This document shows, in pieces, positions 104-6,100 of a stretch of 40,292 nucleotides of DNA. Both the position numbers and the translations under genes were made by a program. The DNA is taken from the NCBI RefSeq assembly GCF_000003605.2, contig NW_003158233.1:151795-192086 (forward strand). The letters are read 5' to 3'. Numbering within the stretch: position 1 is the stretch's first letter; every line of letters begins with the position of its first letter. This DNA is from Saccoglossus kowalevskii (Eukaryota > Hemichordata > Enteropneusta > Harrimaniidae). Under the pieces are notes generated by a model. The model was not told where the DNA came from. It made no database searches and worked only from the letters and a program-made list of their open reading frames with translations.

Positions 104-3100
104 CTGCAATCAATAAATGACCATAAATATTTTGTTAGTGGTATGCTTGTTATTAGATTGGTGGCAATAGCTTAATTTGGTGGTGAAAAAATGCCATTAA
201 ATCAATGACAATACAGAAAGCTGTGGAAGGAACATACTACATGCATGGAACTTTCCTACCTTCTCCCATGCCGCTATTCAATAAGACTCCCCATGAGAAC
301 CACATAGCTGATGACAATGTCAGAGCATCCTGTTCATCTCCAGTCTGACCCGATTTGAATCTACCAAATGGGCTAAATCGATCTAGAACATACAGGATCA
401 ATGCCACTATGTGCACAGCCAGACCAATCAGCAACCAAAGTGCACTCTCAAAGGGTTGGAAAAATGATGCAAAACTACTTCCATGGTCTTTCTGCAATAA
501 TGAAAATGAGTGAACTTAATATTATGTTCAGAGAAAAAAAATCAACTATGTAAGATTAAAAGCTTTAATTTAAAAGTGATATTTTGTGTGGAGCGAGTTG
601 AGGACATTTTGAATGTGACAAAAAGCAAGCTTATTTACCACTGTTTTACTAATTTGTTAATAGCTCTTTCATCATAAACAAGGATAAGTTGCTGAAAACT
701 TTATTAAATAAATTTTACTACAGTAAACTAAGAATGATATTTCATCAGAATCAATTTTATTTAAATAAATAAATTCTAAACAAATAATAAGATTACAATG
801 GAATTTAAGATTTGCTTTGGAAATATTATATTTAACAATAATATCATTTTTATTATTTTTTGGACAACGCATGCCTCAGCACATTGTACAGAAATGATTA
901 AAAATATTATTATTAAAATATTTAAAATTACAGGTAACGTACATGTATATTCAGAAAGGTTAAAACTTGGTTTAACAGGACATGAATGTCACAGTCCCTG
1001 TTATTTAATTACAAAATGCTCATGTTAAAATAATACATGGAACATCTGCAAACAATTAAATTTATATGTACTCTATGTGGGTACAACTCATCATGATAAA
1101 GTGATTTCCCTTAATCTGATAACTGAAGTACACAAATGCAACCAAACTATGTCTCATACATGCTCAAGAAACTGCATTCATAAATCATAAACCTTGATGT
1201 ACCTTTAATAACAACTTGACTTCTGTGTTAATTCATGTCTTTGTATATTACCAGGACCTGGGTTTGTTCCAGTATCACCACTATAACTACCATCAAAATA
1301 TAGCCCTGACACCACTCTACATTTTCTACTGAGATTGGTAATGGTACAACCAATCTGTCACTGATTCAGATCAAGGTCATGACCAGGTCATGTCATCACT
1401 AAAAACCCTAGCATTACAATCTAAGCTAATTATTTATTCTGAGCATGCTCAGTTGCTCTGTCAGTGCAGTAGGGAGAGGTAATTTTGGATAAAAATCTTG
1501 AAAAAGAAAAGACATAGGATTTTCAGATCTGAAGAAAAAAATTATGTGCATATTCAACACAGACTTGTTCATCAATCTACCAAGTTTCATTGAAATCTGC
1601 TGCAGAATTTCTGAGAAAATGTTGGAGACATAAAGGAGTTGAACGGAAGGAAACAGGAAATAAGAAATAATAGTTGCCTTTCAGGCCACACCTGAACGGG
1701 GATTAAAATGTTGTGACCATAACGTTGTAGTTGTGTCATATAGTTTAAAACCTATTACAATTGATAAACAGTTGATCAGTCTGAGATTATATTAAAATGT
1801 AGAATATGACCTGTGATGATTTGCTCATTTGCCCAAAGTGTTTGGTCTGGCAAAATTGTGTCTTTTCTATGAGTCGCATGAGTGAGTGTTTCATCTTGTC
1901 TGCCAAAATGGCAACCAATTCAAATCTTTTCTATAGTAACATTGTATTGTGCATAACAAATATATTATTAAGAATATATTAATAAAGATGAGAGACTGTA
2001 GTAGTTAATTAAAATGAGCAAGGGATTGAAGTTTACAGAAGCATTAAAGGCCTTGATGCCCAATGAGCTTGTCTTGGAGTGCTTTGATATTCTCTATATT
2101 ATTCCTTGTGCTAAGGCCATTATCTAAATTTTGGCCTTGCAAATAGAGGTCATCCCCATGAGCTATATAAAGAGTAAATACCTACTTTTTTCACTAATAT
2201 TGTTAGTCCTTGATATTTGAAAGGTACAGAGAAGTCAATATATTGAGCACGTTCATTGTTGATGGTCAGTGGAGCAACGATCATATCAGCTTTGTTATCT
2301 ACCAGTTCTCCGACCATACCATTCCAGTGTTTCTTATAGCTACCATTCATCTATTAAGAATAATTGTGTTATAGATGTTTACAGTGTTAAAACACCCGAT
2401 GATTGGTCTAGCGCTACCTAGTGAAGTAGATTGTCATGATGCATGGTCTAGCACCACCAAGTGTTGTACAATGTCATGATGCACCTTCTAGCGCCACCTA
2501 GTGTTGTAGATTGTCCTTATGCATGGTCTAGCGCCACCTAGTGTTGTAGATTGTAATGATGCATGGTCTAGCGCCATCTAGTGTTGTACATTGTCCTGGT
2601 GTATGATCCAGAACTACCTCGTTTTGTACATTGTCAGGATGCATAGTATAGCGCCATCTAGTGTTGTACATTGTCACAATGAATGGTCTAGCGCCACCTA
2701 GTGTTGAACATTGTCATGATGAATGGTCGAGTGCCACCTCGTATTGTACAGTCATGATGCATGGTCTAGCGCCACCTAGTGTTGTACATTGTCATGATGA
2801 ATGGTCGAGTGCCACCTCGTATTGTACAGTCATGATGCATGGTCTAGCGCCACCTAGTGTTGTACAGTCACAATGAATGTTCTAGCGCCACCTAGTGTTG
2901 AACATTGTCATGATGCATGGTCAAGCGCCATCTAGTGATATGAATTGTCATGATGCATGATCTAGCGCCACCTAGTGTTGTACATTGTCACAATGAATGG
3001 TCTAGCGCCATCTAGTGTTGTACATTGTCACAATGAATGGTCTAGCGCCATCTAGTGTTGTACATTGTCACAATGAATGGTCTAGCGCCATCTAGTGTTG

Positions 3101-6100
3101 TACATTGTCCTGATGCATGGTCAGCGCCACCGAGTGTTGTACATTGTCACAATGAATGGTCTAGCACCATCTAGTGTTGTACATTGTCACAATGAATGGT
3201 CTAGCGCCATCTAGTGTTGTACATTGTCCTGATGCATGGTCAGCGCCACCGAGTGTTGTACATTGTCACAATGAATGGTCAAGCACCATCTAGTGTTGTA
3301 CATTGTCTTGATGCATGGTCAGCGCCACCTAGTGTTGTACATTGTCAGGATGCATGATCTAACACCACATAGTGTTGTACATTGTCATGAAGGTGTTTAT
3401 TTTCATAATGAATGGTTTTTTTTACTATCAACATCATTATGGAGAGTTTGTACTCATGTCGGTTGTGTTCATTACCATAACCAAAATGCAGAAGATTAAT
3501 AACCACTAAGCGAATTAACTTACTTTTGCAAGAAGATCAGATAATATGAAAATAGACTGCACAAAGCATTGTTTGTTTCTTAAGTGCATAGTTTTCATTG
3601 CTTTTTCGCATTTTGTTAATGAAAATAAGAAAACACTTTCACACTTTCATTTTTTTCTGCAAGCATTTGAAGTAAACAATTTTTCATTGATTTATACTGT
3701 AACGCCAAGATCAGCATAGCACTGTCATGTCATTGCGGATGTGTATGTGTGTTTTGTAATATATTTTGTGTCTACTCTATCATCCAGGATACTTCCATAT
3801 GAAGTTCATTATGCTCAAAACAGAAATAGCAATAATAAAATCCATGCGATAAAAAAGTATAATCACAATACTTTTAAATGCATTTGGTAATTTCATTCTT
3901 ACCCCTAGTTGTTTGGGAACTTCCAGTGTACCATATTTGCCATCAGATACGAGATGGAGATCATAACTAAAGTTAAGGTGATCAGCTAGCTTCACTAATA
4001 GGTCAATACAGAAACCAGTACAACACATGGTGGACCCTGTCAAATTAATAAAATATATATATAAACTATTGTAAAACATGTTTAAATAGCTACATGCAAT
4101 TTTAGTGAATTTGACTCCATGCACGAAGTAACTGAATCTTAATTTAACTGAAGTGCCAACAATCTCATTGTGAGAATATACTTTATTCTAAATCAGCGAC
4201 ATCTTGAATTAGCGAAATTACAGATTAGCTAAATTAGCTAAAATAACATGCTAGCTAAAAAGACATGTTTTACAGTATACAGGATTCTGTTGACTCGGTC
4301 AAAATCTGCTGACTCAAAATCTGACCAAATATAGCTTCAAACACTGATTATCTGTATGGTTTTAAATATTGTATTTCCATATACATATGTGAATAAAGTA
4401 TATAAACTCATTCCTGGTCCTAATAATTATTCTAATCAACTATACTACTATATCAACTATATATATATCAATGCATATAAGAGCTTGATACATGGCCATA
4501 TTGTTACATTGTACTTGCAGTATGTTTACATTGTGATCAGTTTTGCATTAACAATGGAAACACAATATTTCAAACCAGAGTAACAAAGATGAACTCTCAG
4601 ATAATGTTATTCTATGATATTTGTTTTGCTTAAAAAGGGATTTACAAAATACAGGTAAGATAAGGGGATCTGTCATAAGTGATTTTTCTTCTATGCGAAT
4701 ATCTACTGTCAACCTTGAAAACCTGGCTTGTTAAGTTCACCCTAATTGATCAAGTGTGTACATCCCAAATTACCACAATGTGGTGATTTTACGTTCACTT
4801 AGAGATCTCACATCATGTGTGAAAGACAGGTTCAAACGTCTGCCACACATGATGATATGATTTTGAACTTAAAATTTCTTTCACAGAGGAATATGGCATT
4901 GAGAGATCTTTGCTTAATCAAAATTGGCCACCATCAAATGTGTATAGAACATTATTAAAGTGTGGTAGTTGTCGCGCTGCGCATGTGCCACATTTGTGTT
5001 GATAAACATTGATTTTTCCACAATTCAATGCGCTCTTCAAATGAAAATCACAAGTATGAGGTTTAACCTGGGCGCAACTTGCACTGATTACCGCCGATGA
5101 CTCCTTTGATACCTTCGAATAACATGAAAATTACCTAATTAAAGCTTTAAACATGGGAACACCAGAAAAATATTTTCGCATGTGTTAAATTCCACATGAC
5201 TTTTTGATGCACCTACAATGCTATAACCTTTGCTTGGCCTACTTTACATTTGTTTACAGGCATAATGTTAGATCTTACAATGAACGGAAAATGGTCTATT
5301 ACTTACAATCACCACCATCTCCACTTTTGTTGTACTGGGCACACTCAACTGCTTTGATATCATGGCTACAAGATCCTTCACTATTAGGTGGCCCTACCAT
5401 AACAAAAGGTTTTGTATCGATTGTTGTAATCTAAAATAAAACAAATAATTCATATATTAGGAATTATTGTACTGCTTTCGTATACTATAGATTAGATAGT
5501 AATTTCAGTATACCAAGGGATACTGGAATACAGGTGTATTCATTGATGCATACTTAGGGAGTACTGTAGGTAAGATGCATTGCAGTGCACCTAGAAGATC
5601 CTGGAATACAAGTTTATTCATTGATGCATACTTAGGGAGTACTGTAGGTAAGATGTATTGCAGTGCACCTAGAAGATCCTGGAATACAAGTGTATTCATT
5701 GATGCATACTTAGGGAGTACTGTAGGTAAGATGCATTTGCAGTGCACCTAGAAGATCCTGGAATACAAGTTTATTCATTGATGCATACCTAGGGAGTACT
5801 GTAGGTAAGATGCATTTGCAGTGCACCTAGAAGGTCCTGGAATACAAGTGTATTCATTGATGCATACTTAGGGAGTACTGTAGGTAATATGCCTTTGCAG
5901 TGCATCTAGAAGGTCCTGGAATACAAGTTTATTCCATGATGCATACTTACGGAGTACTGTAGGTAAGATGCATTTGCAGTGCACCTAGAAGGTCCTGCAA
6001 TACAAGTGTATTCATTGATGCATACTTAGGGAGTACTGTAGGTAATATGCCTTTGCAGTGCATCTAGAAGATCCTGGAATACAAGTTTATTCCATGATGC

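What the first reader, a model, noticed from the sequence alone, without database searches (positions are those of the whole stretch)
2398..3390. Array of like-oriented CTCF-type motifs in a GluN1 intron
Seen: 25 tandem 40-bp units, 15 with an exact GCGCCA(C/T)CTAGTG core. On the minus strand each reads ACACTAGGTGGCGCT or ACACTAGATGGCGCT, matching the vertebrate CTCF consensus CCASYAGRKGGCRSY (as I recall it) at 14 of 15 positions and agreeing with the fly core AGGTGGCGC. All sites share one orientation. Inference: a minisatellite may have amplified an insulator site, making a dense CTCF cluster inside a neuronal receptor gene that could affect looping or splicing of the nearby exon. The degenerate units mostly fail inside the core as well, so selection for the motif is not shown.
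Basis: partly seen in the sequence, partly recalled or inferred. Interest (0 to 1): 0.72.

Follow-up and report, generated by a model that had tools for sequence, protein, structure and literature searches.

The report
Intronic minisatellite carrying CTCF-type sites
A short DNA segment carrying a likely binding site for the chromosome-folding protein CTCF was copied about 25 times in a row inside a neuronal receptor gene of an animal; the motif is genuine for this genome, but nothing shows that natural selection keeps it, so it is most likely an ordinary repeat that happened to pick up such a site.

Summary
The array is real: 25 tandem units of about 40 bp (21 distinct) at 2404-3390, in a GluN1 intron. 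15 units carry an exact GCGCCA(C/T)CTAGTG core, all on the minus (sense) strand. The CTCF reading of the motif gains independent support: ACACTAGRTGGCGC occurs 53 more times in the 572-Mb assembly (reversed control: 1). Those 53 sites lie in flanks that are unrelated apart from one pair, yet match the CTCF matrix at five positions outside the search pattern. So the genome holds a dispersed CTCF-type motif, and the array amplified one member. Two other minisatellites with different units carry a CTCF-type core; random capture predicts 3-4 in all, a rough estimate. No recognisable CTCF gene was found, but sampled stretches were often N, so this is open. Best reading: a locus-private minisatellite that captured a CTCF-type site by chance and may bind CTCF, with no sign of a selected function. 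Mouse DXPas34 is a precedent.

The parts
2404..3390 (-). Minisatellite of 25 units of about 40 bp; the motif reads on the minus strand, the sense strand of GluN1
   Evidence: TRF and segmentation
2398..2403 (.). Six-base partial unit at the left edge
   Evidence: segmentation
2491..2503 (-). First of 15 exact GCGCCA[CT]CTAGTG cores; the others start at 2531, 2571, 2651, 2691, 2769, 2847, 2885, 2925, 2965, 3005, 3045, 3085, 3204, 3322
   Evidence: pattern count
2404..2483 (-). First two units, cores not exact (8 other units also lack an exact core)
   Evidence: segmentation
3355..3390 (-). Last, incomplete unit, core not exact
   Evidence: segmentation
2351..3902 (-). GluN1 intron that holds the array (boundaries inferred)
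   Evidence: GT-AG sites and protein matches
2186..2350 (-). GluN1 exon downstream of the array in the gene
   Evidence: NMDA 1 match E 3.2e-24; boundaries inferred
3903..4036 (-). GluN1 exon upstream of the array in the gene
   Evidence: NMDA 1 match E 1.9e-11; boundaries inferred

Best explanation
The feature is an ordinary, locus-private intronic minisatellite. It arose by tandem duplication of a 40-bp segment that happened to contain one member of this genome's dispersed CTCF-type motif family. Slippage or unequal exchange then multiplied and partly homogenised the units, and the core mutates as freely as the rest. If the animal has CTCF, some of the 15 intact sites could bind it, several at a time at 40-bp spacing, as a passive and redundant cluster in one orientation. 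Shown: array, motif, genome-wide motif family, no copy of the unit elsewhere, no excess core conservation. Inferred: duplication mechanism, binding, weak or no effect.
For: Array and motif. 53 dispersed sites against 1 in the reversed control, flanks unrelated apart from one pair, with CTCF-like bases outside the pattern: mean score 1.37 against -1.92, sd 0.34, maximum of 5000 draws -0.57. CANNAGNNGGCGC 2825 against 757 for a control of the same bases that keeps GGCGC. 60 fetched sites prefer C at position 7, T or A at 8, A at 11, G at 12 and T at 20. The array piece matched nowhere else. No excess core conservation. Three arrays with adjacent intact cores found, 3-4 expected by chance capture.
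Against: 15 of 25 units keep the exact core. The commonest core variant (9 of 25 units) falls at CTCF position 11, where CTCF accepts G or A, which could be read as tolerance under constraint; but the distinct core changes are no milder for the matrix than random ones (P = 0.62). One of the measures leans towards constraint: the 14-base core has 12 variant types, and only 4 of 40 rotations have as few. The capture estimate rests on 17.4 kb of sampled sequence and this window, so it is loose.
Confidence: 0.75

Rival explanations
1. The array is a working CTCF cluster: many sites in one orientation stall cohesin or RNA polymerase and shape looping or splicing in the GluN1 gene.
For: 15 intact sites in one orientation, a motif that is real for this genome; position close to an acceptor; precedent of DXPas34, whose monomers are said to hold a CTCF site each (passages of PMC3149622).
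Against: No excess core conservation; one orientation follows from tandem duplication and is not evidence; site quality is middling or below; in echinoderms CTCF motif orientation shows no pattern at boundaries (abstract and passages of PMC13317027); both flanking exons match GluN1 chains in the ligand-binding part, so skipping either would be costly (inference).
Confidence: 0.12
2. The dispersed motif is read by another zinc-finger protein in this lineage and CTCF itself is lost or very divergent.
For: Human CTCF finger queries found matches only at the level of ordinary C2H2 proteins: for the distinctive 88-residue part the best-scoring match has 37% identity and no listed row exceeds 41%; for 284 residues the top rows have 34-38%.
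Against: The motif matches CTCF at positions 1-3, 18 and 19, which were not searched for; only part of the first-look candidates were scored (137 of 451, 150 of 370) and long N stretches exist, so a miss is plausible; CTCF is reported across bilaterians, with losses in some phyla (passages of PMC10658182).
Confidence: 0.1
3. The resemblance of the founder unit to CTCF sites is pure coincidence, unrelated to any motif family of the genome.
For: Position 4 is A, disfavoured in the vertebrate matrix and used by 9 of 60 native sites; position 20 is G where most native sites have T; one of 100 random windows held a site as good.
Against: The same 14-mer is dispersed 53 times, and the array sites score within the range of native sites.
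Confidence: 0.03

Closest known systems
DXPas34 minisatellite at mouse Tsix
   Same: Minisatellite of 34-bp monomers, each described as holding a CTCF site (passages of PMC3149622)
   Different: Lies at a mammalian X-inactivation locus with reported function; here a GluN1 intron of an unnamed animal and no functional evidence. The same passages say that one vole species lacks CTCF sites in its DXPas34 altogether
DXZ4 macrosatellite
   Same: Tandem array bound by CTCF (passages of PMC3491370)
   Different: Units of kilobases, with the stretch around the CTCF site conserved in primates while the rest diverges; here 40-bp units with no extra core conservation
CTCF sites spread by transposons (lamprey hAT-Tip100 group, mammalian retrotransposons)
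   Same: Repeat-borne multiplication of CTCF sites (passages of PMC5504073)
   Different: Those are dispersed copies; this unit was found at one locus only
Second and third CTCF-type minisatellites in this genome (C1650, C4620)
   Same: A CTCF-type core in the units, one orientation within each array
   Different: Units of 57 and 34 bp, different in sequence outside the core (by eye); their core is CACTAGAGGGCGC

Membership tests
Minisatellite | Head-to-tail units of 10-100 bp with mutual similarity | tested here: met
   40 bp, 24.9 copies, 83% matches
Minisatellite | Copy-number variation between individuals | not testable with these tools
   one assembly only
CTCF binding site | Match to the CTCF core matrix | tested here: met
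   14 units p < 6e-7 (matrix recalled)
CTCF binding site | Motif dispersed and enriched in this genome | tested here: met
   53 dispersed sites with an extended match outside the pattern; 2825 against 757 for the broader pattern
CTCF binding site | CTCF gene present in the genome | tested here: inconclusive
   matches only at the level of ordinary C2H2 proteins; long N stretches
CTCF binding site | Binding in cells | not testable with these tools
   needs ChIP or CUT&RUN
Selected CTCF cluster or insulator | Core better conserved between units than flanks | tested here: not met
   18 parsimony changes against a rotation mean of 17.9; no correlation with matrix information, P = 0.91
Selected CTCF cluster or insulator | Enhancer blocking or boundary activity | not testable with these tools
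   needs reporter assay or Hi-C
DXPas34-type CTCF minisatellite | A CTCF site in each monomer | tested here: inconclusive
   15 of 25 units have the exact core; 18 places in the array score at least 12 bits

The most novel reading that the evidence does not exclude
Minisatellite growth repeatedly multiplies CTCF-type sites in this genome (at least three arrays with different units) and turns single sites into dense one-way barriers whose strength varies with copy number, here inside GluN1.
Probability: 0.1. Interest if true: 0.65.

Novelty: new member of a known kind. Interest (0 to 1): 0.33.

Why it matters
It gives a natural case for asking whether many adjacent CTCF-type sites in one orientation do anything outside vertebrates, where the role of orientation is disputed. 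The genome-wide result also shows a vertebrate-like CTCF motif in this genome from sequence alone. If neutral, it warns against reading function into a row of like-oriented motifs: tandem duplication alone gives that.

Tried and rejected
Mobile-element origin: no copy of the array piece elsewhere (that search skips very common words) and only two weak inverted repeats around the array, 28 nt at 71% and 14 nt at 86%. Dispersed repeat family as the source of the 53 sites: flanks unrelated apart from one pair, L036 and L066; in the same call the array matched L047 weakly, 82% over 34 bases, E 4e-4, next to a second CTCF-like site there. The broader 60-site sample does include repeat families; 14 of the 60 were dropped as duplicates (some grouped by eye) before the native matrix was made, leaving 46. 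RNA feature: no Rfam match at gathering score and no tRNA in the window. Viral contigs: six with a single match each, not examined further. Core sequence in print: two papers in the library hold one of the four 13-mers searched; in one (passage of PMC6344568) it is a guide oligonucleotide for a human EGR1 CTCF site, the first C belonging, as I read it, to the cloning overhang; the other was not opened. Controls: the reversed control (565) has two CpG where the pattern has one, so the control was added; the reversed control has the same fault and no better one was run for that 14-mer. Heger 2012, the survey of CTCF across animals, is not held and is known here only as cited in other papers.

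Full report
What is there. The finding is accurate as an observation. TRF gives one array at 2404-3390, period 40, 24.9 copies. Wraparound alignment gives 25 units and a six-base partial; 21 units are distinct. The core GCGCCA[CT]CTAGTG is exact in 15 of 25 units and absent elsewhere in the window on either strand. All sites read on the minus strand, which is the sense strand of the host gene. The ten units without an exact core include the first two and the last, but also seven inside; the most changed unit (2604) is internal.

Host gene. Three stop-to-stop frames match NMDA receptor subunit 1 with E 3.2e-24, 1.9e-11 and 9.9e-34, best to GluN1 chains. Reading GT-AG boundaries beside these matches places the intron at 2351-3902 (inference). 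The array with its partial unit takes 993 of its 1552 bases and ends 47 bases from the acceptor.

Is it a CTCF-type motif? With the vertebrate matrix (recalled), 14 units have p < 6e-7 and 18 places in the array score at least 12 bits, all on the minus strand; 4 places outside the array reach 12 bits. In 100 Markov windows the best score averaged 12.9 and once reached 19.9, against 18.9 for the consensus unit; no column-shuffled matrix of 5000 reached the unit's score. Under even base frequencies the consensus site lies at the 41st percentile of sites drawn from the matrix, its main fault being A at position 4.

Independent test in the whole genome. The assembly has 572 Mb in 4830 contigs. ACACTAGRTGGCGC occurs 67 times: 14 in the array, 53 elsewhere; the reversed control, which has one more CpG, occurs once. 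I fetched all 53 with about 190 bases on each side. With the core masked, only one pair of flanks is alike at E < 1e-3, so these are not copies of one repeat. Yet at five CTCF positions outside the pattern (1-3, 18, 19) they score 1.37 on average, against -1.92 (sd 0.34) for random flank, maximum of 5000 draws -0.57. On the same five positions 12 of the 14 array sites score below zero and two score 1.19, so the array matches less well there than the average dispersed site. A broader pattern, CANNAGNNGGCGC, occurs 2825 times, against 565 for its reversed control and 757 for ACNNGANNGGCGC, which keeps GGCGC (the 757 include satellite copies on C402 and C756). In 60 listed sites (list order, leaving out the seven rows of C112), the free positions show C at 7 (36 of 60), T or A at 8 (45), A at 11 (50), G at 12 (41), purine at 3 (49) and T at 20 (42). 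This is the CTCF pattern, plus a T at position 20 outside the recalled matrix. The array carries accepted but not favoured letters at positions 4, 12 and 20. With a matrix from 46 non-redundant sites, the 15 array sites with an exact core score 18.9-23.3, against a median of 22.7 for the 53 dispersed sites. That matrix was made from sites with nine letters fixed by the pattern, so it flatters both.

Does selection hold the core? No clear sign of it. Non-majority cells in the 14-base core number 30, against 35.7 on average over 40 rotations (13 rotations as low or lower). Variation does not follow the information content of the matrix (Spearman 0.03, P 0.91). Distinct core changes are as harmful to the matrix score as random ones (P 0.62). 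On a tree of the units the core has 18 changes, rotation mean 17.9. One measure leans the other way: the 14-base core has 12 variant types, a count reached or undercut by only 4 of 40 rotations. The two core CpG columns took six of the 18 changes on the tree, in a window with CpG observed/expected 0.42, which suggests ordinary CpG decay.

Is amplification of such a site special? A 200-bp piece of the array matched only the array itself. Pairs of CACTAGRKGGCGC 20-45 bases apart occur 14 times: 9 in this array, 4 in an array on C1650 and 1 on C4620. These are two more minisatellites, 57 bp x 7.6 and 34 bp x 5.4 copies. The C1650 unit is 19 codons long and open on both strands, so it may be coding, and its motif may be incidental. 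About 24 of the roughly 100 rows listed are CACTAGRKGGCGC (my count by eye), or some 680 sites genome-wide. Founder units of 33-58-bp arrays make up 0.5-0.6% of sampled sequence (17.4 kb readable of 40 kb asked for, and this window), so 3-4 captures are expected by chance. The match with three observed is only as good as that small sample. A further 178-bp array (L008) has a CTCF-like site in each of four units.

Is CTCF there? The distinctive 88-residue stretch found 51 matches, the best-scoring at 37%, none listed above 41%. A true bilaterian CTCF should do better (general knowledge). But five of ten arbitrary 4-kb stretches were wholly N and one partly, and only 137 of 451 and 150 of 370 first-look candidates were scored. 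I leave this open. Published passages report CTCF in molluscs, annelids and rotifers and its apparent absence from flatworms (PMC10658182); [quoted passage not shown] CTCF-like motifs at squid boundaries and cephalopod loop anchors (PMC9023564, PMC12407938); and no orientation pattern in echinoderms (PMC13317027). The phylum of this genome was not established.

Mechanism. Most likely a single CTCF-type site lay in a segment that began to duplicate; slippage or unequal exchange did the rest. Binding by CTCF is plausible but unmeasured. Adjacent cores 40 bp apart are close for a protein with eleven fingers, so not all sites may be filled at once (inference). The shared orientation follows from tandem duplication and carries no extra information. 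The nearest known case is DXPas34, a 34-bp minisatellite with a CTCF site per monomer (passages of PMC3149622). Text searches in the held library for CTCF with minisatellite (20 of 87 papers listed), for CTCF with tandem repeat array, macrosatellite and VNTR (12 of 32 listed) and for CTCF binding sites with minisatellite, intron, tandem repeats and invertebrate (10 of 46 listed) showed no invertebrate example by title or start of abstract; this is not proof of absence.

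Noticed in passing
window 39292-40292: Another minisatellite, 35 bp x 28.6, runs to the end of the window, which is also the end of contig C4731.
   Followed up: no
window 5519-6225, 9689-10245, 12052-13565, 23889-25027: Further long minisatellites (79, 47, 119 and 97 bp): tandem arrays are common here, and none of the places outside the finding's array scored as high on the CTCF matrix as its intact units.
   Followed up: partly
window 11218-11712, 13758-14016, 33254-33739: Tandem arrays of 157, 129 and 157 bp whose units look related, one of them in inverse orientation (by eye): perhaps a dispersed family with an internal tandem repeat.
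   Followed up: no
L015-L067: Nine second sites of at least 11 bits within the 53 flanks (39,856 positions), where roughly 0.5 would be expected from the p-values: CTCF-type sites seem to cluster (expectation by hand).
   Followed up: partly
L143 (C112:17001-25000): Tandem units of about 1.94 kb (one shorter, 1.2 kb) with forkhead-like open frames; the contig shows CACAAGATGGCGC seven times, three of the six gaps being 1941-1945 bases. Forkhead named from the sequence by eye.
   Followed up: partly
L144 4665-5095: 57-bp minisatellite with the CTCF-type core, open in frame on both strands with a 19-residue repeat; may be coding.
   Followed up: partly
L145 1415-1599: 34-bp minisatellite, 5.4 copies, with CACTAGAGGG(C/T)GC in most units.
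   Followed up: partly
L008 1493-2145: 178-bp array with a CTCF-like site in each of four units.
   Followed up: partly
L104, L106, L107, L121, L129, L136, L137: Short sequences around the motif that look related, perhaps a mobile-element family that carries it (BLAST joined only L107 and L121, the rest grouped by eye).
   Followed up: no
C402 and C756: Satellite-like repeats of about 332-345 bases seen through the control pattern ACTAGACAGGCGC.
   Followed up: no
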